Shown piece after piece: positions 4,184 through 52,430 of a stretch of DNA of 64,000 nucleotides. Source of the DNA: Rubripirellula lacrimiformis (GTDB taxonomy: Bacteria; Planctomycetota; Planctomycetia; Pirellulales; Pirellulaceae). The stretch spans positions 3,286,001-3,350,000 of the forward strand of contig NZ_CP036525.1 in assembly GCF_007741535.1 (NCBI RefSeq). Reading direction: 5' to 3'. Each line of letters opens with the position of its first letter. Within the stretch, counting starts at the first letter, position 1. The position numbers were made by a program, and so were the translations under genes. The notes under the pieces were generated by a model, which was not told the origin of the DNA, searched no databases, and was given only the letters and a program-made list of their open reading frames with translations.

Positions 4184-6568
4184 ATGACAACAACTCACGC
4201 CTGTCTTTCTTCCTTTCCTTGGTTTGCAAAGATGGCAAAAGTGAGCTCGGCGGTTGTGCCCGCTTGCTTCTGTGCCAAGCCGCCCCTTGGCTGGATGGTT
4301 CTATTCGTTTCGATCATCACGGCGGCGAGTGTTCCCGCACCGGATGCGAGTGGCCAAGATTGGTTGGCGTGGCGCGGTCCACACAACAACGGCACGGTGG
4401 ACCAAGGTGGTTTGATCGAACGATTCAATCCACGTGGGGGACCCGACAGCGGCGTCGTTTGGAAAAGCGAACAAGGGGCGGGAATCTCGACTCCTGTTGC
4501 GATGAACGGTCGCCTATTCACGATCACTCGCCATCAGCCGGGAACGCCGACCGAGGCCGAGAAGGTGGTGTGCTTGGATGCCGAATCGGGCCAACTTGTA
4601 TGGGAGAATGTCACCAATGTCTTTCTGTCGGATGTGCCGGCTGAACGCGTCGGCTGGTCCCATGTTGCCGCCGACAAACAGACCGATTCAGTCTTTGCGA
4701 TGGGCGCGTGCTGCTTGCTAAAGTGCATCGACGCGGACACCGGTGACACGCGGTGGAGTCGATCGCTGAGCGAAGAATTTGGGATGCTTAGCACCTACGG
4801 TGGCCGAACCAATACGCCGGTGATCTTCGATGATCTGGTGATCATCAGCGGGGTGACGACGGGCTGGGGCGATGACGCGCAGCCGGCGCATCGATTCTTA
4901 GCGTTCGATAAAATCAGCGGCGAATTGATTTGGAAGACTGCCACCCGCACGTTCCCCGAGGACACCACCTACAGCACGCCTGTGTTCGGTGTCGTCGCGG
5001 GGAAGGGTGTGATGGTATCGGGCTCGGGAGACGGTTCGCTATACGTGTTCGATCCGCGAACCGGCGCTCGCTTGGGCAGTGTCCAAGTTTCGCGCCGCGG
5101 CGTGAACACGTCGCCTGTGATCTCCGATGACGGTCGCGTCTTCATTGCACATGGCGAGGAGAACCCGACCGGTACGTTGATGGGCGCGGTCGTGGGTGTC
5201 GATCTGGACGGATTGGCGTCGGGATCGACTGGATCGGAACTATGGCGGACCGAAGAATTGATTGTCGGCAAGAGTTCGCCGCTGTTGGTGGGTGATCGAT
5301 TGTATGTAGTGGAGGACTCGTCTCGGCTGCACGTTCTTGACGCCGATACCGGCACCGAGATCGGTGAACCGTTGAAACTGGGCACATCGATGCGAGGCAG
5401 CTTGATCTTTGCCGACGGTAAGATCTACGCGTGCACCGCCACGGGTTACTTCTATGTCTTGCGCCCGTCGACCGATGGCGTGGAAGTGGTTTCCAAGACG
5501 CGATTGCCCAAAGGACATGACGTCGGTGGATCACCAATCGTGGCCTTCGGGCGAATCTATTTGCCAACCACCGGCGGAATCTTCTGTTTGGCAACCGAGG
5601 CGGCGGCGAACGTTTCGCCAGATTCGGCGGATGGCCCAGCTGCTAATGAATCAGCTGCTAATGAATCAGCTGCTAATGAAGCGGCCGTCGACGAAGCGGC
5701 CGTCGACGAAGCTACCCCAGTCGCATCCGATTTGGAGGTGACGCAGTGGCAGATCGTTCCGGCCGAAGCGATCGTGCAGCCCGGGCAGCACATGGTCCTG
5801 CGTCTGATTGGTTACAACTCGGCTGGGCGAGCGGTCCGCGAATCCCAACCATCGGTTCAGTGGACCGTCGACGGGGATGGAGCGATCGATGAAAACGGGA
5901 ATTTGACGGTCGGCGATTCATCCCACCACTCTGCGTTGACGATCAAGGCCGTCGTCGGGGATGCAGTGGCCACTGCCCGCTATCGGATCATCCCTGCCCT
6001 GCCCTGGAATTTCGATTTCATCGACGGGCAAGTTCCGATCACGTGGATCGGGGCCCGCTATCGGCACGAGGCTCGCCAGATCGACGGAAATCACGCGATC
6101 GTGAAGATCACCACGATTCCCAAGGGAACACGGAGCCAGACTTGGTTCGGATCACCCGAAATGAGCGACTACACGGTCACCGCCGATGTTCAGGCGGCCG
6201 CTGGCAACGCCAAGTTGCCGGACATCGGATTGATCGCCCAACGCTACACGATGGACTTGATGGGGGAATCCCAACAGCTGCAGATCCGGACCTGGTCGGC
6301 TCAGCTGCGAATGGCGAAGAGCGTTCCCTTTCAATGGACCGCGGGAACGTGGTATCGGTTGAAGTTTCGTGCAGCCAACGAAGACGGCAAGGCAGTGCTG
6401 CGGGCAAAAGTTTGGCAGCGAGATTCGGACGAGCCCGAGAAGTGGACTCTGGTCGCAACCGACGATTCCCCCAATTTGACCGGCAGCCCCGGTCTATTCG
6501 GCAATTCAACCAATGCCGAGATCGTGATAGGGAACGTCGCCGTCGATTCCAATGCTGGCGAACGCTAG
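4184..6568 (+). CDS. Secreted PQQ-like beta-propeller protein with C-terminal lectin-like domain
   Basis: A 794-aa exported protein. The propeller (roughly residues 60-470) starts at DWLAWRGPHNNG, the typical opening of planctomycete PQQ/BamB-like proteins, and shows repeated blades such as 'VVCLDAESGQLVWE' and 'YVFDPRTGARLG'. A linker of 15-bp tandem repeats (AANES / AVDEA, ~485-510) joins it to an Ig-like segment and a C-terminal region (~590-794) resembling the DUF1080/concanavalin-like fold. Starts at 4184, 4232 and 4295 are all possible; the hydrophobic signal segment follows 4295. No redox partner gene is adjacent. The enzymatic role is unknown; blades alone do not prove a dehydrogenase. 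Confidence 0.8.
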   Translation: MTTTHACLSSFPWFAKMAKVSSAVVPACFCAKPPLGWMVLFVSIITAASVPAPDASGQDWLAWRGPHNNGTVDQGGLIERFNPRGGPDSGVVWKSEQGAGISTPVAMNGRLFTITRHQPGTPTEAEKVVCLDAESGQLVWENVTNVFLSDVPAERVGWSHVAADKQTDSVFAMGACCLLKCIDADTGDTRWSRSLSEEFGMLSTYGGRTNTPVIFDDLVIISGVTTGWGDDAQPAHRFLAFDKISGELIWKTATRTFPEDTTYSTPVFGVVAGKGVMVSGSGDGSLYVFDPRTGARLGSVQVSRRGVNTSPVISDDGRVFIAHGEENPTGTLMGAVVGVDLDGLASGSTGSELWRTEELIVGKSSPLLVGDRLYVVEDSSRLHVLDADTGTEIGEPLKLGTSMRGSLIFADGKIYACTATGYFYVLRPSTDGVEVVSKTRLPKGHDVGGSPIVAFGRIYLPTTGGIFCLATEAAANVSPDSADGPAANESAANESAANEAAVDEAAVDEATPVASDLEVTQWQIVPAEAIVQPGQHMVLRLIGYNSAGRAVRESQPSVQWTVDGDGAIDENGNLTVGDSSHHSALTIKAVVGDAVATARYRIIPALPWNFDFIDGQVPITWIGARYRHEARQIDGNHAIVKITTIPKGTRSQTWFGSPEMSDYTVTADVQAAAGNAKLPDIGLIAQRYTMDLMGESQQLQIRTWSAQLRMAKSVPFQWTAGTWYRLKFRAANEDGKAVLRAKVWQRDSDEPEKWTLVATDDSPNLTGSPGLFGNSTNAEIVIGNVAVDSNAGER

Positions 6569-36886: not shown

Positions 36887-38644
36887 TTATTGGACGGTTT
36901 CAGCCGGTTTTTCTTTCTTCGTGAAAAAGTCTTGCCGCTGATGGTAGTAACCGATTGAAAATAGACCTTGGTCAACGATTCCAAGATGCGAAGGGAAATC
37001 ATGCAGACGTCCCATGATTTCTTGGATTCGTTTTTCAGCGACAACCTTCTTACCGCCTTCGAGCTTACCGATGTGGTGCTGGTTCATTCGGATCAGTCGC
37101 GGGAAAACCGTTCCGGGCGTGGCAGATGCCGCTCCGAAGTAGCGATCTTTGATTGTGGCGTTGAGGCCGGGCAGGGCGTCTTCCTGCGCGCGTTCCAGGC
37201 ACGCAAACAATCGCCCAAGTAGATAGGCAGGGTCGGGGCGTTCGCGATCGAGCATGACGGAAATTTCCTTTTGGTGGTTGTGGTTCAAAATCGCTTTGAT
37301 TGTGGCTGCCTTGACGTGTCGAATTTCCTGTTCGGCACGGATCCGACGCAGGATTGCAGCGAGCAGGGCCTCGGGATAGCGACCGCCTGCAAGAACACTG
37401 CGAAGCAAAGCGCCGCCAAGCAACGGCGGCACTTCTTTGGATTCGCGAGCCGTTTGAGCAAGGATCATCCACAAAGGAATCCAATCGGAATCCTTTCCGC
37501 CGCGAACGATTTCAAGCCTTCGTTGATGCTCAGCGACTCGGCTGACCATTTCGATTGCCGAACCGGAGATCCAAAACCGTATTGATAGCCGCGAGGCGTT
37601 TGGGGACAAACCGAGCACATGAAAAGCGGCACCGGGATCCGGCAGAACTGCGTTGCCGTCTATGGCTTGACTGAGCACATTGCCAACTGCCGCAGCACGC
37701 CCTTCATCTTCGAACCGTCCAGGGTCAAGTCCAAACGAAAACACATCTTCAGCGATCGTGTCCTTGGCGTCAGACCAAAATACGCAAGTCGCATCACCGA
37801 CTTGGAGGGTCCGACCGTTCTTGCGATCGAGCAAGTAATTCAGTGCGGTGGTGTATTTGAATGCGGCCTGTTCGCCGACAGGAGAATTGAAACTTTGAGT
37901 TTTGCCGAAACTTTCAAATGCCGATTTGTTAAATGAGACGATCGAGGCACCAGACGATTGGGCGTCGCGGACACCTTTGATACTGCCGTGCAATCGAGCC
38001 AGTGATGTCCGTTCACCGGTGACTAGGCAAATTCCTGACACGTCATCGCCGTCGCGGTTCATCTGGTAGCCTGACCAAAACCGACGCAGTGGGCTGCAAT
38101 CGTGCAGGAACTGGCGATCACCGTCGATCCTAAAAACCCCGAAGCCGGTTCCCAGTTCGTCAATCAATGCCCGTTGCTCGACTGAAAGACTCGACAGTTC
38201 CCAGGACGAATAGAACCGACAGAGTACGACGTAATCATCGTCTTCGATCGAATCGGCAAATTCCAAGTGCGTTTGTTTGGATGCTTCGAAACATTTTGAA
38301 ACGCGATCGACTTTCTTCAGTCGCTTCTTTTCATCAGATTCACTTTCGCCGATCGGCGGATCACGAAGTTCCGGCGACAGGTACCCCAGCAAGTACTCCG
38401 CTTTGTCCCAAAGGAACATCGCCTTCACGCCGCTGGTTCGTCCCTCGAATGGCAACCGAAGTGAACGCGGGATCTTGCGTTTACCCTCGGTCGATCGCAG
38501 GTCATTGATCGCGGCAACAAGACCATCGCGAGAAAGCACAATCTCAAAAGTGACTTTTTGCGGGGCGAAACCTTCCTGTGCGATTTCGATTTCCGGGTCC
38601 CTGTCGATGACGTCGTAGTACTCGCACAAGCGTTGCAGAATCAT
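36887..38644 (-). CDS. cas8c: Cas8c (Csd1), type I-C Cascade large subunit
   Basis: A 585-aa protein, the usual size of Csd1. It starts [20 protein letters not shown] and contains [34 protein letters not shown] and the C-terminal [20 protein letters not shown] with [10 protein letters not shown], all typical. It recognises the PAM and recruits Cas3; in I-C an internal translation start inside this gene yields Cas11, and I did not try to place it. It overlaps cas5c by 4 bp. Confidence 0.96.
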
Positions 38645-39312
38645 GACCGCACCTCCTCGCTTTGGATCCGCGGAACCTCAATCACACCGTCGATCATGGT
38701 CGCGCGAAAGAACTTGGGTGTCATCTCGTGCTCAAAGTCAATGTCGTGCAGCATGAACCCCATATCACGCTTGCCCTTTAGAGATTCATCAACCGCCGGC
38801 CCATCTCCTTCGTACCAAGCAAAATTTGCGACAAATTCACGACAACCGAGGTAGGGTTGTTGAAAGCATTGTCCTTTGGATGCCCGCCGTTTGAACATCT
38901 CGAAGTGCTTTTGCGGGGCTCCGTTGCCATTGCGGACTTCGTAGTGTGCTTCAATCAAGTACTCGACATCCTGCAATAGCGTAGCGGCACGTTGCTGCCG
39001 ATCGTCTTCGATGATTTGCATCAAGGGTTCAGTTTTAGTACCGCTCAAGTACGGTTTCAGCGTCCGATCCGAGGGGCCGACGCTACCCAGTTCGTTGCGG
39101 CGAATGTTGGTGAAGCGAATCGGCTTCAGGACGTGCAACCGATCGATGACCCAGACGATCTGCGGCTTCCAATAGATGGCTTCCAATACGCCGCGTGCCG
39201 CCGATGGTGTGATCACGTCGTATGACACGCGCTCGACCTTCATCTCAGGCCGGGTGAAACAGGCAAAGTCGCCCCAAATTCGCAGGGCAACTCGATTTTT
39301 TGATAGGTCCAT
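38641..39312 (-). CDS. cas5c: Cas5c (Cas5d), crRNA-processing endoribonuclease of type I-C
   Basis: A 223-aa protein from the ATG at 39312, with AGAGGA correctly placed before it; the frame is open 21 codons further upstream but would run through the promoter. [20 protein letters not shown] and [19 protein letters not shown] are diagnostic. In I-C this subunit replaces Cas6: it cleaves the pre-crRNA at the base of the repeat hairpin and keeps the ~11-nt 5' handle. First gene of the cas5-cas8-cas7-cas4-cas1-cas2 unit, behind the promoter at 39349-39375. Confidence 0.96.
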
Positions 39313-39337: not shown

Positions 39338-39357
39338 TTCGCGTTAGTTCTATACGT
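39338..39357 (+). promoter_or_regulatory. Predicted self-target of the CreR-like guide: TTC PAM plus 17-bp protospacer on the cas promoter
   Basis: TTC at 39338-39340 is followed by GCGTTAGTTCTATACGT (39341-39357). The guide after the diverged repeat reads GCGTTAGGTCTGTACGT. They agree at 15 of 17 positions, including the first seven (seed); mismatches are at 8 and 12, and pairing ends at 18. Positions 12 and 18 are among those flipped out in Cascade. The site overlaps the -10 box, so binding should block transcription, while the short match should avoid Cas3 cleavage (inference from known CreR behaviour). Confidence 0.8.
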
Positions 39358-39375
39358 ACCTAAAACGCGTGTCAA
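39349..39375 (-). promoter_or_regulatory. Promoter of the cas5-cas8-cas7-cas4-cas1-cas2 operon
   Basis: On the minus strand TTGACA (39375-39370) and TATAGA (39354-39349) are separated by 15 bp; reading the -35 as CTTGAC gives 16. Transcription would begin near 39341, leaving a ~30-nt leader before the cas5c ATG at 39312. It is the best sigma70-like promoter I can see in the locus, and its -10 box is covered by the guide's target site. Confidence 0.7.
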
Positions 39376-39496
39376 GGGTTGTAACTAAACGGATTGTCGC
39401 GAGACTTAATTGCACTATTGAGAACTCAGCCAATCGACTTCCGATTTTTCGTCGTAGTGGGCATCCGTTCTTTGGTTAGGAGCATTGGCGTCCCGT

Positions 39497-39588
39497 GTCG
39501 CTGGATAAACCAGCGTGGATTGAAACGCGTTAGGTCTGTACGTTTTCGGAGTTAGGTAGACGCAGCGGCATTGCCGCTGTGTCTACCT
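39497..39588 (+). ncRNA. CreR-like cas-regulating RNA (diverged CRISPR repeat + guide + hairpin)
   Basis: The transcribed-sense array repeat is GTC, arm GCGCCC, loop TTCAC, arm GGGCGC, then handle GTGGATTGAAAC. At 39497-39526 the + strand reads GTC, arm GCTGG, loop ATAAA, arm CCAGC, then the identical handle GTGGATTGAAAC. Both stem arms have changed together, so folding is preserved: selection, not decay. The guide starts at 39527 with the self-target match given above; no second repeat follows. A 17-bp inverted repeat (39554-39588, arms beginning AGGTAGACGCAGCGGCA) closes the unit and may end transcription, though it lacks a T-run. The promoter was not identified. CreR RNAs are known from other type I and V systems; the I-C and planctomycete setting is what I have not seen described. 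Confidence 0.8.
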
Positions 39589-39648
39589 GAGGATTGTCGA
39601 TAGAGTCGTGCGTTGATCAGCACTCCTCCACGCAACTCTGCCACTGCC

Positions 39649-41901: not shown

Positions 41902-42895
41902 GGGCAGCGGTTCGGGAAAACCAATGTTTTATCACGACCGATGACACGTCTGGTCACTCCGCGATCGAATTCTATCTAGCCCTTTTTCCCTGCAGCACGG
42001 ACCCACAACTGCCATGAATGAAAGCCGTGGGGTGCTGAGTGTGAAACGAAGGGGCATGGTAAGAGCTCGTCGGATCTTGTTTGACTCCGGTCGGTCGTTT
42101 GTTCGTAGTACCAGCGTCAGCCGAAGTTTTTTTGGCTCGGTTAGCTCCGATTTCTCGGGTCCGCTTCCGCCTGAAGGCGGTACTACAAACAGAGCCAATG
42201 CAGCGTGTGTCGCCTGACCGTGAACGGCGAACCTAGTGTCTGGAACAGGGTGTCAACCTATTTGGTTGGCCGCTGCATTTGTGATCGGCTAGCGTATTGC
42301 TGCTTGCCGGATTGGATCCATCGCCGGGTGGGACTGGCGCCTGGTTGATCTTTTTCGTTCCCTCGTCGCTGCCGTCGAAGGGCCGCATCTGTTCAATCGT
42401 GCGCAAGCCATTCTCGCTACGTTGATTGCAGACTCGGTACATCGCGGTGACGATGTCGTACTGGCGGTCGCCCCGAACCATTACACAAGGACTAGCGGCC
42501 TGTCGGTTGAGTGCAGTTTCAAATTTTGATGTTAGCCGTTTGGTCGCTAGCCTCCGGTTCTTGGGTGACGAAACCGAGGCTAGCGCCTAAACGGCTAACT
42601 AAACCGACAGCCCGCTAGCCGCGGATGAAGTGCCATTCGTGCCAGGGCGCTCGTACCGCAAAAAGTCCTGGCACTTTCTCGGATCCCCAGATCACCGAGC
42701 ATACAGTCATTCGGCGGCAGCCTTCGACGATAGGCCCGCATCAGTGGGTCTAAGACTGAATCGCCCGAAAGTCTGATTGTTGACGATCGACGCGACGATC
42801 GGCGACGTTGACCGGGACCGAGCGGACGATCTTTCCGTCATGTATGATCGCCACCTGACGAGGTGACACCGGACGAATGGACACAGAGTCATCGC
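41902..42895. other. ~1 kb gene-poor stretch with dispersed repeats
   Basis: Between cas3 and the insertion sequence I see only repeats: 42105-42192 (CGTAGTACC ... CCGCCTGAAGGCGG ... GGTACTAC), a module A palindrome at 42531-42597, and an inverted pair GTGCCAGG/CCTGGCAC at about 42638-42672. Minus-strand frames at 42233-42481 and 42750-42965 have no recognised family; they could be relics of older mobile elements. The cas3 promoter must lie at the left edge, but no clear boxes were found. Confidence 0.6.
42531..42597. repeat. Module A palindromic dispersed repeat
   Basis: TTAGCCGTTTGGTCGCTAGC and GCTAGCGCCTAAACGGCTAA form arms around CCGGTTCTTGGGTGACGAAACCG. It is the same family as 1010-1072 and the flanks of 47823-48013, and a possible MITE- or REP-like unit. 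Confidence 0.8.
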
Positions 42896-42898
42896 TTA

Positions 42899-44239
42899 GG
42901 AACGACGAATAAATAGTCCTCGCCACATCGCCTATAATGTGATCTACCGTTGCGGTGGGAGGCACCGCTCAGAATTCACACGGAGGGTAATTCCATGGCG
43001 TTTCAATTTGAGTCCCCGTACTCCAAGCAGATCGAAGAACGCATGAAAAATGTTTTCGATAGCTTGTCTGAAAAGGATCGTCGCCGCTACGCCGCCATCG
43101 AGACGGAGAAGCTTGGATATGGTGGTCAACGCTACATCTCAGAGCTATTTGGTTGTTCCGAGCATGCGATCCGGCATGGTTTGGATGAGATTGAATCGCT
43201 GCCCGAGGATCCTCTGGGCGATCGACAACGGGCTGAAGGTGGAGGAAGAAAGCAGAAAATTGACGAGGAACCAGAGATCGAAGATCAACTCTTTGAAATC
43301 GTGGATATTCACATCGCTGGCAGTCCCGACGAACCCGATATCATCTGGACTCATCAGTCGCCGCAAGCGATCGCTGCGACGTTGACGCACGATGGCACAC
43401 CGATCAGCGCGCCCACGGTGGCCGATTGGCTCGAAGGCCAAGATATCCGTCGACGCAAAATTGAAAAGTCGATTGCCGGCGGACAGAGCCCCGATCGCGA
43501 TACACAGTTTCAGGAAATCGATCGATTCCGTTCGCTCTTCCGAGAGGCTGGCGACCCTGTTTTCTCCATTGACACCAAGGCGAAAGAGCTTCTTGGCACG
43601 ATGTATCGCGACGGCCGTGCCTACCTGAGCAGTCCGATGCGAGCATTCGATCACGACTATCCGAGTTGGTCCGATGGCGTTTTGATTCCCCACGGAATCT
43701 ACGACCCGGTTCGCAACCACGGACACCTTAACTTGGGGCTCAGTCACGATACCAGCGAGTTTGCCTGCGATAGTTTTTGGTGGTTCTGGCGTCGTGTCGG
43801 GCGATTCCATTATGCAGGGGCCAAAAAGATACTTTGGTTGTGTGACGCCGGTGGCAGCAACAATGCTCGGTACTGGATCTTCAAAGAAGACTTGTCTCGC
43901 TTGGCTACGCGGATCGGACTGCCGATCCAGGTTGCTCACTACCCGCCATACTGCAGCAAGTACAATCCGATCGAACGGCGGTTCTTCTCACAGGTGGGCC
44001 GAACTTGCAGCGGGCTGATGATGCGATCAGCCGAGTTTGCAGCAGAGCTAATGAGACAAACGTCAACAGCGACCGGTCTGAGCACGACCGCCCATATCAT
44101 CAAACGAGCCTACGAACTCAAACGCAAGGCAACCGAGGAATTCATGACACGAATGCCAATCACATTTTCGAACCTACTGCCTCGACTAAACTACACGGCC
44201 AACCCTTCATAGCAGCGCGTCTTATTTATTCGTCGTTCC
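42899..44239 (+). mobile_element. ISAzo13-family insertion sequence with 17-bp inverted repeats and TTA target duplication
   Basis: The ends are GGAACGACGAATAAATA (42899-42915) and its exact complement TATTTATTCGTCGTTCC (44223-44239), giving a 1341-bp element. TTA at 42896-42898 and 44240-44242 is the likely 3-bp target duplication. The single transposase gene is full length, so the copy may be active. Perfect ends and an intact gene suggest recent arrival, next to the CRISPR locus. Confidence 0.88.
42995..44212 (+). CDS. ISAzo13-family DDE transposase
   Basis: A 405-aa protein from the ATG at 42995, with GGAGGGTAA just upstream. The N-terminal helix-turn-helix includes KLGYGGQRYISELFGCSEHAI. 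The catalytic core shows VFSIDTKAKELLG (first Asp), WLCDAGGSNNARYW (second Asp) and YNPIERRFFSQV (Glu), the pattern of the DDE_Tnp_ISAZ013 ('Rhodopirellula transposase') family. Length is normal and there is no frameshift. It fills the element between its inverted repeats. Confidence 0.92.
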   Translation: MAFQFESPYSKQIEERMKNVFDSLSEKDRRRYAAIETEKLGYGGQRYISELFGCSEHAIRHGLDEIESLPEDPLGDRQRAEGGGRKQKIDEEPEIEDQLFEIVDIHIAGSPDEPDIIWTHQSPQAIAATLTHDGTPISAPTVADWLEGQDIRRRKIEKSIAGGQSPDRDTQFQEIDRFRSLFREAGDPVFSIDTKAKELLGTMYRDGRAYLSSPMRAFDHDYPSWSDGVLIPHGIYDPVRNHGHLNLGLSHDTSEFACDSFWWFWRRVGRFHYAGAKKILWLCDAGGSNNARYWIFKEDLSRLATRIGLPIQVAHYPPYCSKYNPIERRFFSQVGRTCSGLMMRSAEFAAELMRQTSTATGLSTTAHIIKRAYELKRKATEEFMTRMPITFSNLLPRLNYTANPS

Positions 44240-44388
44240 TTAGGCTCGTCTCATGCCGACATCGATTCGCTCTTTGACTCACTTCTTCAGTAATCTATAC
44301 CAGAAAACTGCTCAAGACCTGAGTCGCTAGTCGGGTTATTTGTCTAGACCTCTATGGCCAGCGGCGAATGCCTGAATGATCGATCGAG

Positions 44389-47300
44389 ATGAGTGGAATA
44401 ACCATGAGTGCTTCCGATGAAGGCGTCGCCGCTGACTTTGAATATTCTCGCTTCGAGTCCCGGCTTGGGTTGCCCCAAGGTGACGACCGGCAATTGAAGG
44501 ATGCGGCTGTCGCTGTTCGCCAGGAGTATCGAGATGGGTCACGGTGGAAACGCTTGAGTTGCCACCGCGTCAGCATCTTTGCTGAGAAAGATCGTGGGAC
44601 CATTTTCGTCGTTCATGTCGGCTCGTCGGTCGAGTTTGATTGGACCTGGGAAGGAGCGAAAGCGTTTCGCCCGAAGTCGCTTGACGACGACGGACGTGAC
44701 TCTGATCGGTTTTATGAAGAAGCCGACTATGAGGACGACATTGTCTGGTCGAGTGAGATCGTCGAAGTGGACGAGCGGAACGGTTGCTTGTTCATCAGTC
44801 TTGATGATCCTGAAAGGACGCCGACGGCCGGACCGTTCTTTGTTCGTCCGTTTGAGTTCATGTCGGTCTTGGACGCGGTCTATAACGCAGACGAGTTTGA
44901 AGAGGTTCGCAGGCATATACCGGCGAGACTGAACGCCAGCGAGGGCGATGTGCATCCGAGAGTGGCGCTGCCGTGTGAGTTCGGCTTGCCAGAGTTGCGT
45001 GATTGGTGGCAGCACGCGTGGAGCGTTCTTTGGGGACCGCCCGGCACCGGCAAAACTTGGACGACCGGGCAGCAGATCGCCAAGGTCATGCAAGATGAGA
45101 GCGAGCGAGTTCTGGTGGTATCGACGACCAACCGAGCGACGGATGCCGTCGCTATCTCCATTGGCGAAGCGGCAAAGGGATTCTGCCCTGATGAACTCGG
45201 TGATGACACGCTGCTGAGAATCGGGAAGGGTGCGTCGTACCAAACGTTCGTCGGAAAAGAGCTCGATCCGATGCTCCGGGGAACCGAGTCGGAAGTCTTG
45301 TCACAGATCGATGGACTGGCACAGCAACTGCAACTGTTTGAATCGTCCGAAGACAAAGCCCTGACACGAAAACGGATCAGCGAACTGCGAGCCTCCGGTA
45401 ACGACCAAAGCAACCGAATCTTTGTGGATGCTCAGCGACGAGTGGTGGTCGCCACCGCATTCAAAGCGATGAGCTATTTGAAGGACGAGTCCATCCGCAA
45501 GATGGTCGAGGATGGCGGCGCCCCTTTCACCACAATTTTCATTGACGAAGCGGGGTTGATCTCCAGGGCAGCGGTCGCTGCGTTGTCGCTGTTGGCCGCC
45601 AGACGAGTCGTGTTGGTCGGGGATTCAAAACAATTGGCTCCGATCAGTCGAATCTCACGGATTCTGCCAACTCGCCAGCAAACGTGGTTGGCGAGCAGTG
45701 GGCTGAGCCATCTGGACGATACGGAAAACATCCCCCACGCGGTTCACCTCCTTTCGCAGCAGCGGCGAATGCACCCGGACGTTTGCAGGGTCGTGTCGAG
45801 CTACCAGTACGATGGCGTGTTGACGACCGCACCGGACCGAGCCGAGTTGGAATCTACGCTTTCGCCATTCATTGCCGGTCAATCGAGAGCCATCTGGTAC
45901 GTCCTGGATGAAGAGGATGCCAGTCTCGCTTCCATTCGTGCCGCACGTGGACCGGGCAACCGAAGCTGGGTTCGTGGAGTAACGCAGTCAGTGCTGCAAA
46001 AGCTGTTTTCGGATGCCGATGTTTGCTCAGCAAACGGCTTGTTCATCTCGCCATTCAAAGCCCAAGCTCAGCAGGTCGGGAAGCTTCTGGCTGGTTGGGG
46101 GATGACGAATTGGGAAGCTTCGACCGTCCACAGTCAACAAGGTTCGGAAGCGGACATTGTCATCTTTGATACGGTCAATGCGGGCAGTGGGACGTGGCAA
46201 GTCCCCGAATGGAAAAGGCTTGTCAACGTTGCACTTAGTCGGGCCAGGGAAGCGGTGATTGTTCTAGCAAGTCGTAGCGAGATGGAAGAACCGTATCTGC
46301 GCCCACTGAAGAAGGACATGACCGCAGCGTTCCTTGCGCGAGACGACGAGCGTTTTGTTTGGCGAAAGCCGGGTCATCGAGAGTCAGGTCAACGAGATCC
46401 AGGCCAAACGGTAGGGTTCGGAGCATCGATTGCGGCTGAGCAAAAGGGAAGCTACAAGAAAAAGGCATCTTGTCGCATGGGCGATCAGTTCGTTGATCGC
46501 AAGGGAATGAAGCCCATTCTTTCCCAAGAACAGCAACGGCTGACCAATCTTGAACTTGATGGAAAACCCCGCTTGGTTCGTGGAGTAGCGGGCAGCGGAA
46601 AGTCGATTGTTCTTTGCAATTGGCTCGCCAAGACGGCGAAGCGTTTGCAAGATCAGAAGGATGCCCGTATCTGGGCCGTCTACGCCAATCGAAGTTTGCA
46701 AAAGCTGCTTCGCGAATCGATTGAATCGGCATGGACCAGCCTTAACGAAGGAGACCTTTTCGATCAATCAGAGTTCCCTTGGGATAAAGTGTCGCTGCTT
46801 CATGTGAAAGACGTTTTGGCCGGGATGCTGCCAAGCGTTCGGATGTCGATCGAGTCGATTGGTTTTGATTACGACCGTGCCGCCGAGGAGTTCCTGAATC
46901 GTCAGGATGTGGACGATCTGCTTCCCCGTTGCTCGGCTTTGTTCATCGATGAAGCTCAAGACATGGGACCGGCAACGTTGCGGTTGCTGTTGTCCATCGT
47001 CGAGCAAGCGGACGAAGGAGACGCCAACAGTCGTTCGGCACATATCTTCTACGACAACGCACAAAACGTTTACGACACCAAGACTCCGAAGTGGTCCGAG
47101 TTCGGTCTCGACATGCGTGGTCGTTCGACGATCATGCGAGAGAGCTTTCGGTCAACCACGCCGATCACCGAACTTGCTGTCAACGTGCTGAGCCGACTTT
47201 CGGAATCAAGCAAGCGACAAGATCAGCAAGAATTGCTTCAACTGGGATTGCTGGAGAAAATCCATCGAAACGACGAAGACTGGTTGCGAGTGCGGTACAA

Positions 47301-47805
47301 CCAGATCGATGGACCGAAACCGATCTTCCATAGCTTCGAGAACCGAAGCCAAGAAATGGCTTCGATTGCCGGTCACCTAAAGCACTTAATCCAGAACGAT
47401 GGGATTTCGCCAACCGATATCTGCCTCATTTACAACGGTCGAGTTCGGAACGTTTTGCAATCCAATCTTGCACCGGCACTTGCAGCGATCGGTGTCGAAC
47501 TCTCTTTTCAAAAGAATCGTTCGTTCGAAAGACAGCCCAACACACTGGTTGCCACCACTCCACATTCGTTCAAAGGTTACGAATCAGAAGTCGTTGTGAT
47601 CCCGTGCGTGGACCACTATGTGGCTCCCGAAGGCAAAACCTTGAAGAACAGCCTTTACGTGGCAATGACTCGCGCTCGCTCGCTGCTGGCAATCTATGGA
47701 GTGAACCGTGGATCGGAAGCGAGTCGAAAGATTGGCGAAACGATTGGTACGTGTATCGCGATCCAAAACACTCAGCCGATCGTTCAGGATTTGGGCGATG
47801 GGTAG
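44389..47805 (+). CDS. Tandem SF1 helicase fusion (Upf1/DNA2-like + UvrD-like)
   Basis: A 1138-aa protein with two complete SF1 ATPase modules. The N-terminal ~200 residues are a beta-rich unrecognised domain. Module 1 has GPPGTGKT (~216-223), FIDEAGLISR (~384), VGDSKQLAP, TVHSQQGSEADIVIFD and NVALSRARE, as in Upf1/DNA2-like helicases. Module 2 has GVAGSGKS (~731-738), FIDEAQDMGP (~851), RESFRSTTPI, TTPHSFKGYESEVVVIP and YVAMTRARS, as in UvrD/Rep enzymes. No nuclease motif was found. All ATPase motifs look intact. It stands alone downstream of the insertion sequence in the defence-rich island; a role in DNA repair or phage defence is possible but unproven. ATG at 44389 or 44404. Confidence 0.88.
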   Translation: MSGITMSASDEGVAADFEYSRFESRLGLPQGDDRQLKDAAVAVRQEYRDGSRWKRLSCHRVSIFAEKDRGTIFVVHVGSSVEFDWTWEGAKAFRPKSLDDDGRDSDRFYEEADYEDDIVWSSEIVEVDERNGCLFISLDDPERTPTAGPFFVRPFEFMSVLDAVYNADEFEEVRRHIPARLNASEGDVHPRVALPCEFGLPELRDWWQHAWSVLWGPPGTGKTWTTGQQIAKVMQDESERVLVVSTTNRATDAVAISIGEAAKGFCPDELGDDTLLRIGKGASYQTFVGKELDPMLRGTESEVLSQIDGLAQQLQLFESSEDKALTRKRISELRASGNDQSNRIFVDAQRRVVVATAFKAMSYLKDESIRKMVEDGGAPFTTIFIDEAGLISRAAVAALSLLAARRVVLVGDSKQLAPISRISRILPTRQQTWLASSGLSHLDDTENIPHAVHLLSQQRRMHPDVCRVVSSYQYDGVLTTAPDRAELESTLSPFIAGQSRAIWYVLDEEDASLASIRAARGPGNRSWVRGVTQSVLQKLFSDADVCSANGLFISPFKAQAQQVGKLLAGWGMTNWEASTVHSQQGSEADIVIFDTVNAGSGTWQVPEWKRLVNVALSRAREAVIVLASRSEMEEPYLRPLKKDMTAAFLARDDERFVWRKPGHRESGQRDPGQTVGFGASIAAEQKGSYKKKASCRMGDQFVDRKGMKPILSQEQQRLTNLELDGKPRLVRGVAGSGKSIVLCNWLAKTAKRLQDQKDARIWAVYANRSLQKLLRESIESAWTSLNEGDLFDQSEFPWDKVSLLHVKDVLAGMLPSVRMSIESIGFDYDRAAEEFLNRQDVDDLLPRCSALFIDEAQDMGPATLRLLLSIVEQADEGDANSRSAHIFYDNAQNVYDTKTPKWSEFGLDMRGRSTIMRESFRSTTPITELAVNVLSRLSESSKRQDQQELLQLGLLEKIHRNDEDWLRVRYNQIDGPKPIFHSFENRSQEMASIAGHLKHLIQNDGISPTDICLIYNGRVRNVLQSNLAPALAAIGVELSFQKNRSFERQPNTLVATTPHSFKGYESEVVVIPCVDHYVAPEGKTLKNSLYVAMTRARSLLAIYGVNRGSEASRKIGETIGTCIAIQNTQPIVQDLGDG

Positions 47806-47822
47806 CCAGGAGTCTTTCGATT

Positions 47823-48090
47823 GATTAGCCGTTTTGGCGCTAGTACCGGTTCATAGGTGACGAAACCGAGGCTAGCGGCCTGCAGATTTAGTAACCCGCT
47901 GCGTGAGCGAGGGATTCAACAGGATCCCTCGCTCACGCTTCGGGTTATGATTTGCACGCTAAGTTCCGGAAAACGAATTAGCACGCCGCTAGCGACTAAA
48001 CGGCTAACTAAATCGACAAACCGTCAAGAGTTTCGGCCTTGCCATGATTTACGAAAGTCTTGACGACTTCCGCTACGACGTTTGCCCGAA
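47823..48090. repeat. Composite dispersed repeat: modules A-C-A and an inverted core of the 184-bp repeat
   Basis: Module A half (TTAGCCGTTTTGGCGCTAGT), then the module C hairpin (CCCGCTGCGTGAGCGAGGGA against TCCCTCGCTCACGCTTCGGG), TTTGCACGCTAAGTT, then the inverted half of A (CGACTAAACGGCTAACTAAA). At 48021-48085 follows, inverted, the core of the array at 6.6-8.6 kb (ACGAAAGTCTTGACGACTTC then CGCTACGACGTTTG). It lies between the helicase gene and the dehydrogenase gene (convergent 3' ends). Confidence 0.85.
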
Positions 48091-48123
48091 CGTCTAGCTG
48101 GCATTGCGCAAACTCACTCAGTC

Positions 48124-49149
48124 CTAAACGACTTCGATGATCGCCTTGATGACACCGGTTTCTGGCTTAGTGAACGATTCGAAATCGTTCAGGACGCCGT
48201 CAAAGCTGGTTCGGTGCGTGATCCACGGATCGGTGTTGATGGTGCCGTCTTCGATCAAACCGATGATGCGTGTGAAGTCTGGTGGAAGCGCGTTTCGCGA
48301 CGCCTTGATCGTGGCTTCGGGACGGTGCATCACCGGATGTCGGAACGACAATTCGTCGGTCGTGATTCCCACGTAGACCAGCGTTCCGGTCGGTGCCAGA
48401 TACTGGAACGCGCCGGACATCGAATGCTTGTTGCCGGTTGCGTCGGTGATGACCTGATACATATCGCCGCCGGTCAATTCCTTCATCCGATCGATTTCGC
48501 TGCCGTCGCCTTTGAACAGGACCGTGTTTTCGATTCCGTAGTTGTCTTGGACGAACTTCAATCGGTCGGGATTCATATCCATCACGCTGACGGTCGCGTC
48601 GGTCAAGCGAGCGAACTCTAAAGTCGCCAGCCCGATTGGGCCCATCCCGATGATCAACGCATGATCGCCACCGGTCGGTGCGCCTCGGTCGTTGGCGTGA
48701 CAGCCGATGGCCAGGGTTTCGACCAATGCCAATTGGTCGTAGGTCAGTTTGGACGACGGGTGCAATTTGTCGGCGCGAACCAAGAACGATTCGCATAGTC
48801 CGCCGTCGCACATCACGCCGATGACCTTCAAGTTCTGGCAGCAGTTGATCGCCCCTCGGCGACAGGCATAACATTCGCCACAGTTCATGTAGGGTTCGAT
48901 GCTGCAGGCGTCGCCCGACTTGACGTTGGTGACGCCATCGCCGACCGAGACGACTTCGACGCCCAGCTCGTGTCCCGGGATCCGCGGGAAATCGAAGAAC
49001 GGAAACTTGCCCAAATAGCAGCTGACGTCGGTGCCGCAAACGCCCATGCGATGGGTTTTGACCAACGCCATGCCGGGGCCGGGTGCGGCCGGGGCGTCGA
49101 TTTCGATGGACTTGAGTTCTTTGACGTTCGAGATCTGAATGGCGCGCAT
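48124..49149 (-). CDS. Zinc-dependent MDR-family dehydrogenase
   Basis: A 341-aa medium-chain dehydrogenase. Catalytic zinc site: CGTDVSCY (Cys), PGHELGVE (His-Glu) and a later Glu; structural zinc site: CGECYACRRGAINC. The Rossmann motif GMGPIGL near 170 binds NAD(P)H. It resembles sorbitol/threonine/L-galactonate-type dehydrogenases acting on sugar acids or polyols. The next gene downstream of it in chromosomal order (49247-50080, same strand, upstream in transcription, 97 bp away) is a fuconolactonase-like hydrolase, so a shared role in L-fucose or related deoxysugar breakdown is plausible (inference). Confidence 0.9.
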   Translation of the reverse strand: MRAIQISNVKELKSIEIDAPAAPGPGMALVKTHRMGVCGTDVSCYLGKFPFFDFPRIPGHELGVEVVSVGDGVTNVKSGDACSIEPYMNCGECYACRRGAINCCQNLKVIGVMCDGGLCESFLVRADKLHPSSKLTYDQLALVETLAIGCHANDRGAPTGGDHALIIGMGPIGLATLEFARLTDATVSVMDMNPDRLKFVQDNYGIENTVLFKGDGSEIDRMKELTGGDMYQVITDATGNKHSMSGAFQYLAPTGTLVYVGITTDELSFRHPVMHRPEATIKASRNALPPDFTRIIGLIEDGTINTDPWITHRTSFDGVLNDFESFTKPETGVIKAIIEVV

Positions 49150-49246
49150 TCTATTTCCAAGCGTAAGAAAGGAGTTGCGGGTTGGTTGGGAATGGGGGTG
49201 TCGTTGTGTGGCAGATGCATGGGGATGTCAGGCCCCTGCGGGTGCA

Positions 49247-50080
49247 TCAAGCCAGGCTGTAGGCTCGGATAGCGTTGTCGGCAAAGATTGCTTGTTGTTC
49301 GTCAGCCGTCAGTTCCGCGGCTAGTTCGCGTACGGTATCCAGCCAACGGCGATGATGGGTCTTTAGCAGACAGACCGGCCAATCGCTGCCGAACATCAAT
49401 CGGGACGGTGTGAACGCTTCCAATGCGACGTCCCAGTACGGGCGGATCGTTTCGATCGACCAGTCGGCATCACGCACTTCCGTGGCGACACCCGAGAATT
49501 TGCAGGTTAGGTTTGGTCGCCGAGCGAGTTCGCGAAGATGGTCGGCCCAAGTTTGATCAAACTCTGCTGACGCGATTGTCGGCTTGGCGATGTGATCCAA
49601 GACCATCGGCAAATTGGTATGAAGATCTGCAAACTCAATCGCCGCAGGCAATTGTTTAGCGAAGATCAAAACGTCGTAGACCAATCCACGATCGTGCAGT
49701 TGAGAAACACCGCGATTGAAGTCCGCGCCCAATAGGAATCGGTCGTCGGGTTCGTCTTGGACCACATGTCGAATGCCCTTCAGCTTTGCGACACCCTCGA
49801 AGCGATCCAGCGCGTCGCCAACATTGGGATCCGCCAGCGGAACCCAGCCGACGACGCCGCGAATCAGTGGTTCGTTGTCGGCGATTCGCAACAGTTCCTC
49901 GGTCTCTTGAACCGTTTGCCTGGCTTGCACCGAAACAAACCCATCGACGCCGCTTTCCGCGGCAACTTGACGTAGTTCGTCGCCAAGAAAGTCCCGCCGC
50001 AGGACCGACATCGATTCGTCGATCCATCCGTATTGTTCGGCCGAATACTTCCACAGGTGATGGTGGGAATCAATCAACAT
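49247..50080 (-). CDS. Amidohydrolase-family lactonase, L-fuconolactonase-like
   Basis: A 277-aa TIM-barrel hydrolase of COG3618. It starts MLIDSHHHLWKY with the metal-binding His pair; other conserved pieces are FVSVQARQTVQETEELL, GIRHVVQDEPDDRFLL, MVLDHIAKP and FGSDWPVCLL with the catalytic Asp. The family hydrolyses sugar lactones such as L-fuconolactone and L-rhamnono-lactone. First gene of a likely two-gene unit with the MDR dehydrogenase. The exact sugar is not provable here. Confidence 0.88.
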   Translation of the reverse strand: MLIDSHHHLWKYSAEQYGWIDESMSVLRRDFLGDELRQVAAESGVDGFVSVQARQTVQETEELLRIADNEPLIRGVVGWVPLADPNVGDALDRFEGVAKLKGIRHVVQDEPDDRFLLGADFNRGVSQLHDRGLVYDVLIFAKQLPAAIEFADLHTNLPMVLDHIAKPTIASAEFDQTWADHLRELARRPNLTCKFSGVATEVRDADWSIETIRPYWDVALEAFTPSRLMFGSDWPVCLLKTHHRRWLDTVRELAAELTADEQQAIFADNAIRAYSLA

Positions 50081-50154
50081 GCTGAAATCATCTAATCAGA
50101 GAAAGCCAAAGGGTGACATTGCGACGGTACAAGTTACCGCAAATCGCGACGGGG

Positions 50155-51504
50155 TTACCCCAATAATGCGCGGGCGATGTTGATGTAGATCACAATGCCC
50201 AAAATGTCGACGATTCCCGCCACGAACGGGTTGCTCATCATCGCCGGGTCCAGCCCTAGCCGTTTGAAAACGATGGGCAACGTCGCCCCGCACAGGCAAC
50301 CGCAAACGATGACCGACAATAAGGTGAACGGAATGACCATCGCGGCACGCGGCGACGGTGCGATGAACAGGGCAACCGCGAAGCCGATCATGGCAAGAAA
50401 ACTGCCCAACCCGAACGCCACGATGACTTCACGTCGCAGCACTTCGGGCCAGTCGCGGAACTTGACCTCGCCGCTGGTCATGGCGGTGATGACCAGGGTG
50501 GCCGACTGGCTTCCAGAGTTGCCGCCGGCGCTAATGATCAACGGAATGAACCACACCAACCACGCAAATTTGTCGAGTTCGACTTCGTAGTGTCGCAGTG
50601 CGAACGCAGTCAACAGGGCGGCGAAGAATAGGATCGTCAGCCATAGACCGCGTTTCCACGATAGCGTCCACAGACCGACCTTCAGAAAATTTCCCTCCAG
50701 CGGCTCGACCGCAGCGATCCGCTGAGCATCTTCGGCGAGTTCTTCGCGGACGACATCGATTACGTCATCGTGAGTGATGATGCCCAGCAGTTGTCGGCCG
50801 CTGTCGACGACGGGGATGGCCAACAGATTGAATCGTTCGACTCGTTCGGCAACGGTTTCTTGGTCATCGGACACCAGGGCCGCGATGACATCCGATTCCA
50901 TGATTTCGCCAAGCGTGCGTGTCGGCGTTTTCAGCGAAGAAACCAATTGACGCGTGGAAACGACACCGCGAAGCAGATTTTTATCGTCGACGACGTACAG
51001 GTAGTAGATGGTTTCCAGTTCGCTGGATTGCCGCCCCAATTCCTCCAACGCTTCGCGAACCGTGAGGTGTTCCTCTAGCATCGCCACTTCGCTGGTCATC
51101 AGCGCGCCGGCGGTTTCGTCCGGATAGGACTGCAACCGTTGGATGTCGCGGCGGTCCTCCAGCGGCAGCAGCGGCATGATCTGGTCGGCACGCTGGCCCG
51201 ACATCTCTTGGATCAAGTCGACGCGATCGTCCGAGGGAAGTTCTTCGATCAATTCGGCCGCTTGGGCCGACGGCGACTGTTCCAACAGCGTCAGTTTGCG
51301 TTGATGCGGAAAGTAGCCAAAGATTTCCGCTCGTCGCGTCGGGTCGGCAAACTGGAGCACCTGCCAGACCTCATCGTCTGCGAGTCCCTCCATGAACTCG
51401 GCAGTACGACCAGCGTTGAGCGCTTGGCAAAATTCTTCGAGTTCCGCCCGGTTCGCAGCGGCCAGCATCTCTCGCAGCTCAGGCAAGAATAGCGTGTTGT
51501 ACAT
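50155..51504 (-). CDS. mgtE: Magnesium transporter MgtE
   Basis: A 449-aa Mg2+ channel. The N-terminal superhelical domain (~1-130) has LADDEVWQVLQ and ELPSDDRVDLIQEM. Two CBS domains (~135-260) include DETAGALMTSEV and LLGIITHDDVIDVV. Five membrane helices (~285-449) include the pore signature PLIISAGGNSGSQSATLVITAM, followed by a C-terminal helix with GIVDILGIVIYINIARALL. Cytosolic Mg2+ binding to the N and CBS domains closes the channel in this family. Monocistronic. Confidence 0.95.
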   Translation of the reverse strand: MYNTLFLPELREMLAAANRAELEEFCQALNAGRTAEFMEGLADDEVWQVLQFADPTRRAEIFGYFPHQRKLTLLEQSPSAQAAELIEELPSDDRVDLIQEMSGQRADQIMPLLPLEDRRDIQRLQSYPDETAGALMTSEVAMLEEHLTVREALEELGRQSSELETIYYLYVVDDKNLLRGVVSTRQLVSSLKTPTRTLGEIMESDVIAALVSDDQETVAERVERFNLLAIPVVDSGRQLLGIITHDDVIDVVREELAEDAQRIAAVEPLEGNFLKVGLWTLSWKRGLWLTILFFAALLTAFALRHYEVELDKFAWLVWFIPLIISAGGNSGSQSATLVITAMTSGEVKFRDWPEVLRREVIVAFGLGSFLAMIGFAVALFIAPSPRAAMVIPFTLLSVIVCGCLCGATLPIVFKRLGLDPAMMSNPFVAGIVDILGIVIYINIARALLG

Positions 51505-51616
51505 GGCCGGGACTTTGGGGGAACGAAGGATCGATCAAAACGTTGGCTGAAGAACAACCTTCAACAGCAATGGTGAGCCGCTGGCCGTGAGGCCACGGGC
51601 AATTCCCGGCCTGCTG

Positions 51617-52430
51617 ACTTAGTTAGCCGTTTAGGCGCTAGCCTCGGTTTCGTCATCCAAGAACCGGGGCTGGCGGCCTGCACCTTTCGTAACCCGCTGC
51701 GTGAGCGAGGGATCTAGTGGTATCCCTCGCTTACGCTTCGGGTTGTGATTTGCACGCTTAGTTCAGGAAGACGACTGAATCAACAGGCCGCTAGCTTGCT
51801 AACGGCAAACATTCATCATCCAACACAGCGCACCTTTGGTAACCCGCTGCGTGAGCGAGGGATCTAGTAGTATCCCTCGCTTACGCTTCGGGTTGTGATT
51901 TGCACGCTTAGTTCAGGAAGACGACTGAATCAACAGGCCGCTAGCTTGCTAACGGCTAACATTCATCATCCAACACAGCGCACCTTTCGTAACCCGCTGC
52001 GTGAGCGAGGGATTTGGTAGGATCCCTCGCTTACGCTTCGGGTTGTAATTTGCATGCTTAGTTCAGGAAGACGACTGAATCAACAGGCCGCTAGCTTGCT
52101 AACGGCAAACATTCATCATCCAACACAGCGCACCTTTGGTAACCCGCTGCGTGAGCGAGGGATTTGGTAGGATCCCTCGCTTACGCTTCGGGTTGTGATT
52201 TGCACGCTTAGTTCAGGAAGACGACTGAATCAACAGGCCGCTAGCTTGCTAACGGCTAACATTCATCATCCAACACAGCGCACCTTTCGTAACCCGCTGC
52301 GTGAGCGAGGGATCTAGTAGTATCCCTCGCTTACGCTTCGGGTTGTGATTTGCACGCTTAGTTCAGGAAGACGACTGAATCAACAGGCCGCTCGCTTGCT
52401 TTGGCTGACATTCATCATCGAACAGTGCGA
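51617..52430. repeat. 150-bp tandem repeat array, five units, built from module C
   Basis: CACCTTTCGTAACCCGCTGC-type units start at 51681, 51831, 51981, 52131 and 52281, exactly 150 bp apart. Each contains the hairpin CGTGAGCGAGGGAT / ATCCCTCGCTTACG, then TTTGCACGCTTAGTTCAGGA and CAGGCCGCTAGCTTGCTAAC. Module A (51617-51680) leads the array. The array fills the gap between the mgtE start and the efp stop, ending 25 bp from the efp gene. Confidence 0.95.

What the first reader, a model, noticed from the sequence alone, without database searches (positions are those of the whole stretch)
39338..39588. CreR-like autoregulatory guide RNA in a type I-C cas locus, aimed at the -10 box of the cas operon
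Seen: a diverged CRISPR repeat at 39497-39526 (+) keeps the exact 12-nt handle GTGGATTGAAAC and the 5' GTC, with a new stem (GCTGG/CCAGC in place of GCGCCC/GGGCGC) in which both arms changed together. The following guide matches 39341-39357 at 15 of 17 positions with a perfect 7-nt seed, directly 3' of a TTC PAM. That site covers the TATAGA box of the cas5c promoter, and a hairpin ends the unit. By simple arithmetic with equal base frequencies, a match this good anywhere in ~500 bp of both strands is expected by chance less than once in 10,000 trials, before requiring the PAM. Known: CreR RNAs repress cas promoters in other type I and V systems through partial matches that block cleavage. Inferred: Cascade sensing and feedback control here. 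To my knowledge not described for planctomycete I-C systems.
Basis: partly seen in the sequence, partly recalled or inferred. Interest (0 to 1): 0.95.

Follow-up and report, generated by a model that had tools for sequence, protein, structure and literature searches.

The report
CRISPR guide that represses its operon
Next to a bacterial CRISPR immune system lies a single altered CRISPR repeat whose guide matches the switch of the system's own genes, so the immune complex probably turns its own production down; similar units turned up in related systems from several bacterial phyla.

Summary
A lone diverged type I-C repeat (39497-39526, +) keeps the exact handle and a new paired stem. Its guide matches 39341-39357 at 15 of 17 positions behind a TTC PAM, over the cas5c promoter. 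Within 3 mismatches of TTC plus guide, the 8.54 Mb genome holds only this site and the guide itself. A census of 155 I-C loci gave 35 ectopic handles upstream of cas3 or cas5 (1.4 expected); in 23 loci the guide matches its own locus better than all, or all but one, of the 154 others. Scored without PAM or position weighting, 16 of 19 sites carry TTC, and mismatches fall on guide positions 6 and 12 (24 of 38), rarely elsewhere in 1-14 (8 of 228), the Cascade flip-out signature. Best reading: a one-repeat CreR-like RNA that recruits Cascade to repress cas5-cas8-cas7-cas4-cas1. CreR is known from types I-B, I-E and V-A; I saw no I-C case, but two key papers were not readable. Caveats: the window's guide has a true mismatch at position 8; expression is untested; a divergent RNA toxin is not excluded; 132 of 155 loci lack a confident unit. 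Several related units target small toxin-like genes instead.

The parts
39497..39526 (+). lone diverged I-C repeat: GTC, 6-bp stem CGCTGG/CCAGCG (its last G is the first handle base) with loop ATAAA, exact 12-nt handle
   Evidence: Rfam CRISPR-DR9 is the best but sub-threshold match (18.3 against 45 bits)
39516..39526 (+). 11-nt part of the handle expected to become the 5' handle of the crRNA-like RNA (I-C processing by Cas5c, recalled)
   Evidence: identical to the array repeats
39527..39543 (+). guide, matching part (15 of 17; mismatches at 8 and 12)
39552..39590 (+). 3' hairpin, 18 bp with 3-nt loop, standing in place of a second repeat; its 17-nt core occurs once in the genome (1 mismatch allowed)
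39338..39340 (+). TTC PAM of the target
39341..39357 (+). protospacer-like target over the cas5c promoter
39349..39354 (-). -10-like TATAGA of the cas5c promoter (TAGAAC, 17 nt from -35, is an alternative)
   Evidence: scanner negative
39370..39375 (-). -35 TTGACA of the cas5c promoter, identical in three related loci
38641..39312 (-). cas5c, first gene behind the targeted promoter (ATG 39312)
   Evidence: TIGR01876, 184.5 bits
36887..38644 (-). cas8c
   Evidence: TIGR01863
35982..36836 (-). cas7c
   Evidence: TIGR02589
34491..35171 (-). cas4
   Evidence: TIGR00372
33469..34494 (-). cas1c
   Evidence: TIGR03640
39649..41901 (-). cas3, on the far side of the unit, not behind the targeted promoter
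   Evidence: TIGR01587 and TIGR01596
26393..32944 (-). I-C CRISPR array: 98 exact handles plus a terminal repeat with one changed handle base

Best explanation
A small RNA is transcribed on the + strand from just before 39497 to about 39590. Cas5c cuts the diverged repeat at its stem, leaving the standard handle, and the RNA enters Cascade with a fold-back 3' end in place of a second repeat. The guide takes Cascade to the TTC-flanked site over the -10/-35 region of the cas5c promoter. Pairing stops after about 17 of the 33-37 nt of most spacers here, so the DNA is held but not cut by Cas3, and transcription of cas5-cas8-cas7-cas4-cas1 falls. More Cascade means more repression; many crRNAs, or an anti-CRISPR that ties up Cascade, relieve it. 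Shown: parts, match, uniqueness of the site, recurrence of the design with locus-specific guides, flip-out mismatch pattern. Inferred: transcription, processing, Cascade loading, repression, no cleavage, release by competition.
For: (1) Anatomy and uniqueness of the target. (2) The site is 29 nt upstream of the cas5c ATG with perfect TTGACA and an AGAGGAA ribosome site; no gene fits between. (3) A. aestuarii keeps the pair: 15/17, seed 11, TTC. (4) Of 35 ectopic handles in 155 I-C loci, 23 guides match their own locus at rank 1 or 2 of 155, in a score that credits TTC; expected handles 1.4, at most 3 in 20 shuffles. (5) Without PAM or position weights: 19 of 35 rank so; TTC in 16 and GTC in 2 of the 19; mismatches at 6/12 24 of 38 against 8 of 228 elsewhere in 1-14, Fisher 7e-18. 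(6) Handle-adjacent stem of at least 5 pairs (G-T allowed) in 20 of the 23 units against 80 of 385 background places; 3' hairpin of -14 kcal/mol or better in 21 of 23 against 74 of 385. (7) The close relative L054 has a decayed repeat, no guide or hairpin, and its promoter has changed at guide position 2 and in the -10.
Against: No transcript, reporter or binding data. Position 8 of the window's guide is a true mismatch (G opposite A); in the I-B CreA of H. hubeiense a change at any of 1-5 or 7-11 abolished function (passages of PMC8501985), so this copy may be weak; position 12 is a G-T wobble at a flip-out place. The scanner finds no sigma-70 promoter or terminator. The unit's own promoter is unidentified. 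The hairpin starts 25 nt after the handle, nearer than a 33-37-nt spacer would end. 132 of 155 loci showed no confident unit, and 12 of 35 handles had no convincing target at home. In several others the target lies before a small gene, not at cas. The mismatch count takes related loci separately and includes one doubtful site (L059, PAM CGG).
Confidence: 0.82

Rival explanations
1. CreTA-type module: the site is the promoter of a small RNA toxin read on the + strand through 39358-39496, and the unit is its antitoxin; repression of cas5c would be a side effect or a second role.
For: Unit and presumed toxin interval lie in the same order and strand as in CreTA; several I-C relatives have the target before a small gene: PIN-domain genes in L012 and L138, small hydrophobic peptides in L164, L169, L173, L134, L193.
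Against: I saw by eye no clear + strand promoter at the site; the short + strand ORFs listed there (36 and 53 codons, GTG and TTG starts) have no clear counterpart in L056 or L054; the site sits on the cas5c promoter; the interval aligns unevenly among three relatives, with conserved blocks next to the promoter and just before the repeat; L054 lost the guide but kept the promoter.
Confidence: 0.1
2. Relic: a stray or degenerate repeat-spacer left from an old array, with a chance or self-acquired match to the promoter.
For: One near relative (L054) has a decayed copy; the window's guide has a seed mismatch; two further array-like handles exist elsewhere in the genome, unlocated.
Against: 6.6 kb from the array and on the other strand; exact handle with a newly paired stem; conserved in L056; recurrence with the same mismatch rule in other loci.
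Confidence: 0.06
3. Chance: handle-like word plus a lucky promoter match.
For: A 12-nt word is expected about once in such a genome (arithmetic); four copies of a transposase-like word and three strays are there.
Against: 2 of 20,000 shuffles reach the match even without PAM, 98 array spacers reach at most 12/17; the swap control and mismatch pattern over loci.
Confidence: 0.01
4. A decoy RNA that occupies Cascade or Cas5c (as phage solitary repeats, Racrs, do) rather than a guide.
For: A lone repeat with a hairpin end is the shape of a solitary repeat unit (PMC10651486, abstract start and passages only).
Against: The guide matches the cas promoter behind a PAM here, and guides match their own loci elsewhere.
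Confidence: 0.02

Closest known systems
CreR, cas-regulating RNAs (Liu et al. 2023, Cell Host Microbe; not held, known here through passages of the reviews PMC13131331 and PMC12737573)
   Same: crRNA-like RNA with limited complementarity to the promoter of its own cas operon; generally no toxin gene beside it
   Different: reported as autorepression of types I-B, I-E and V-A; here type I-C, Cas5c-type repeat, one repeat plus a hairpin
CreA of CreTA, Haloarcula hispanica one-repeat form (PMC8501985, passages)
   Same: one diverged repeat, guide pairing at 1-5 and 7-11, terminator in place of the second repeat; for its H. hubeiense relative also TTC PAM and free 6th and 12th nucleotides
   Different: type I-B, archaeal, represses an RNA toxin instead of cas; most CreA genes have two repeats
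crRNA-like elements and mini-arrays surveyed by Shmakov et al. 2023 (NAR gkad495; not held, content recalled, citation seen)
   Same: standalone repeats in cas loci with partial matches to cas promoters (recalled)
   Different: cannot say whether I-C or this architecture is listed
Cas9 autoregulation by a natural single-guide RNA (Workman et al. 2021; citation seen, content recalled)
   Same: effector represses its own promoter with a partial guide
   Different: type II, guide derived from the tracrRNA
CrePA (review section read)
   Same: Cascade guided by a crRNA-like RNA represses a gene beside the CRISPR system
   Different: the target is a protein toxin gene, typically with a KilA-N domain; relevant to L012 and L138, not to the window

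Membership tests
CreR | crRNA-like: repeat-derived handle of the cognate system in front of the guide | tested here: met
   12 of 12 handle, new 6-bp stem
CreR | limited complementarity to the promoter of the own cas operon, with the system's PAM | tested here: met
   15/17, TTC, over the cas5c promoter, no other such site in the genome; that TTC is the I-C PAM is recalled and fits 16 of 19 sites
CreR | no toxin gene coupled to the unit | tested here: inconclusive
   no ORF in the gap with a clear counterpart in relatives; an RNA toxin cannot be excluded
CreR | RNA is made and loaded into the effector | not testable with these tools
   needs small-RNA sequencing or Cascade pull-down
CreR | effector-dependent repression of cas without cleavage | not testable with these tools
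   needs reporter and mutants
CreR | second repeat, as in a mini-CRISPR (usual, not defining: one-repeat CreA is known) | tested here: not met
   only one exact handle in the gap; a hairpin follows the guide
CreTA | target is the promoter of an RNA toxin | tested here: inconclusive
   target is the cas5c promoter; a divergent RNA in 39358-39496 not excluded
CrePA | target is the promoter of a protein toxin gene | tested here: not met
   the gene behind the targeted promoter is cas5c; only short GTG/TTG ORFs in the gap
Rfam CRISPR-DR9 | gathering score 45 bits | tested here: not met
   18.3 bits

The most novel reading that the evidence does not exclude
One-repeat, hairpin-ended Cascade guides are a recurrent trait of type I-C systems in at least three phyla, with two outputs: repression of cas itself, as in the window, and repression of small toxin-like genes placed between guide target and cas (PIN-domain genes, hydrophobic peptides of about 50 residues). 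Type I-C would then carry its own autorepression and addiction circuits, so far described for other subtypes.
Probability: 0.6. Interest if true: 0.72.

Novelty: new member of a known kind. Interest (0 to 1): 0.62.

Why it matters
If right, type I-C joins the subtypes that control their own amount by guide RNA, in bacteria whose CRISPR regulation is little known. Through the circuit the cell could sense crRNA load or anti-CRISPRs. The mismatch rule (free at 6 and 12, TTC in front) gives a cheap search that separates likely regulatory guides from stray repeats in type I loci, and the toxin-linked units are candidates for new CRISPR-guarded toxins.

Tried and rejected
A joint scan for relaxed handle plus target (its score leaves out positions 6, 12, 18) gave the exact-handle set over again plus borderline L013 (23.0; highest shuffle score was 23.8), which was left out. 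Considered and rejected: array relic, chance, decoy RNA, protein toxin in the window gap (see rivals). Handles counted but not accepted as units (12 of 35): L017, L057, L059, L069 (second handle), L073, L091, L105, L116, L135, L142, L143, L185; L073 and L135 have a handle but no convincing target. L018 (10 of 12 handle; matches through guide position 21 except 6 and 12, PAM GTT) fell below the handle cut and is not counted.

27 genomes over the cut-off, own plus 26 fetched; 7 below it not fetched; 45 new places, 40 fetched, 5 left out (short contigs, one of them also a partial match); 68 new places, 49 fetched; 5 new, 4 fetched; 33 new, 27 fetched. Total 155 with the window.

Full report
The locus. 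The window is part of an 8.54 Mb single-contig genome. Minus-strand genes from 41901 down are cas3, cas5c, cas8c, cas7c, cas4 and cas1, followed by an array with 98 exact handles; cas2 was not looked for. Cas5c is 87% identical to that of Aporhodopirellula aestuarii. The 20 listed other genomes of the same genus have no Cas5c match (187 more genomes without a match were not listed one by one), which hints at transfer of the system.

The unit. In the 336-bp gap between cas3 and cas5c a lone repeat lies on the + strand, opposite to the array and the cas genes. It keeps GTC and the exact handle, but its stem is new and still paired. The guide that follows matches the cas5c promoter at 15 of 17 positions behind TTC. 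By arithmetic the chance is 7e-5 per 1000 sites; 2 of 20,000 shuffled gaps reach it without PAM, and none of the 98 array spacers passes 12 of 17. Within 3 mismatches of TTC plus guide, the genome holds only this site and the guide itself. An 18-bp hairpin follows, whose 17-nt core occurs once in the genome (1 mismatch allowed); the unit folds with z = -6.2.

Other handles in the genome. Of 108 copies, 99 are in the window. Seven of the other nine were read: four belong to one sequence, by eye a transposase gene, three are strays. Two, preceded by CGC like array repeats, remain unlocated (counts); they could be further lone repeats.

The target. The promoter has a perfect TTGACA and either TATAGA at 15 nt or TAGAAC at 17 nt; the scanner accepts neither. 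The ATG lies 29 nt from the first matched base, with AGAGGAA before it. A spacer-length footprint would run from the PAM to the -35.

Close relatives. A. aestuarii (L009, L056) keeps stem, handle, guide, PAM and match, with seed 11 and mismatches at 12 and 15. L054 (Cas5c 95% identical) shows a decayed repeat with broken stem and handle, has lost guide and hairpin, and its promoter differs at guide position 2 and in the -10. L049 (90%) has a 97-bp gap with neither. So the pair is kept, or lost together, in this sample of four; that is suggestive only.

Census. I collected 155 I-C loci: 68 from Planctomycetota, 51 from the phylum of the Akkermansiaceae contig L012 (L014 counted here by its name), 28 from the phylum of the Thiothrix contig L013, 8 others (fetched in 27, 28, 36, 37, 52, 53, 56, 57). 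In the cas3-cas5 gap and 800 bp upstream of cas3 (1000 bp upstream of cas5 in the 7 loci where no cas3 was seen there) there are 35 handles matching at 11 or 12 of 12; shuffles give 1.4 on average, 3 at most. Each guide was then scored against its own locus and all 154 others. 23 guides rank first or second at home: 11 of 68, 8 of 51, 4 of 28 and 0 of 8 by group. That score gives credit for TTC; without any PAM or position term 19 rank so, and 16 of these have TTC and 2 GTC, against 4 TTC in the other 16. One of the 19 (L059, CGG) is probably false.

The mismatch rule. In those 19, position 6 mismatches 13 times, position 12 11 times, all other places from 1 to 14 together 8 of 228 (Fisher 7e-18; related loci counted apart). 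In type I Cascade every sixth base is flipped out (recalled), and in the I-B CreA of H. hubeiense the 6th and 12th bases are free while 1-5 and 7-11 are needed (passages of PMC8501985). A relic or chance match would not show this. The window's own guide fits less well than most: it matches at 6, mismatches at 12 and also at 8. By the I-B data a change at 8 would matter, so this copy may repress weakly. In the I-F CreA of Acinetobacter the unpaired places are 6, 11 and 18 (passages of PMC10097628).

Architecture. Of the 23 units, 20 have a stem of at least 5 pairs next to the handle and 21 a 3' hairpin of -14 kcal/mol or better, against 80 and 74 of 385 random upstream places; a TTTT lies 35-85 nt after the handle in 14 of 23, not always right behind the hairpin, and not in the window. 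This resembles the one-repeat, terminator-ended form that PMC8501985 describes for H. hispanica creA and takes to be a reduced two-repeat form.

Not all guides point at cas. Distances from target to the aligned start of cas5 or cas3 run from 27 to over 500 nt (starts are alignment starts). L083, L133, L056 and the window lie within 60 nt with no gene between. In L012 and L138 the target lies just before a PIN-domain gene (Pfam PF01850; VapC is my label), in L138 with a FitA-like antitoxin gene upstream; in L164, L169 and L173 before small hydrophobic peptides (membrane nature judged by eye) directly followed by, or overlapping, the unit; L134 and L193 share another small hydrophobic protein, L055 and L066 a basic protein of 66-69 residues; in L062 and L063 a tRNA-Trp gene lies between target and cas5. 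These look like CreTA or CrePA relatives in type I-C and deserve their own study.

Literature. Reviews (passages only; one section) state CreR for I-B, I-E and V-A, or for type I in general. Eight searches (several lists capped) showed no paper on a I-C CreR; none of the 12 papers listed of 32 holds 'type I-C'. Liu 2023 and Shmakov 2023 are not in the library, so a I-C entry in their tables cannot be ruled out.

Verdict. It is a new member of a known kind, with good comparative support and no experimental proof.

Noticed in passing
L012 about 2040-2484; L138 about 5193-5961 (cas5-forward coordinates): Cascade-guide targets sit directly before PIN-domain genes inside I-C cas loci; in L138 with a FitA-like antitoxin gene. 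Candidate CRISPR-guarded protein toxins.
   Followed up: partly
L164 5809-5970, L169 3134-3289, L173 5713-5850 (cas5-forward coordinates): Small hydrophobic peptides between guide target and guide unit, upstream of cas genes; L164 and L169 are 36% identical over 33 residues; no Pfam family over its cut-off.
   Followed up: partly
L134 5889-5701, L193 5766-5575; L055 6827-6627, L066 6002-6208 (cas5-forward coordinates): Two further small protein families (39% and 37% identity) next to guide units and their targets.
   Followed up: partly
L062 5600-5685, L063 13168-13253: A tRNA-Trp gene lies between the guide target and cas5 in two I-C loci.
   Followed up: no
L054, cas3-cas5 gap: Decayed copy of the window's unit in a relative with 95% identical Cas5c: broken stem and handle, guide and hairpin deleted, promoter changed.
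   Followed up: yes
window 39394-39407: TTGTCGCGAGACTT upstream of the -35 is identical in three related loci; possible further regulator site.
   Followed up: no
own genome outside the window, unlocated: Two more copies of CGC plus the handle, one per strand, follow from the counts; they may be further lone repeats.
   Followed up: partly
L018 about 1178 and 1340 (Clostridia-type contig, cas5-forward coordinates): Guide with 10 of 12 handle matches a site 53 bp before cas3 through position 21 except at 6 and 12, with PAM GTT; left out of the counts.
   Followed up: partly
window 42531-51979: Dispersed repeats with GCTAGC and AACGGCTAAC motifs around 42.5, 47.8 and 51.6 kb.
   Followed up: no
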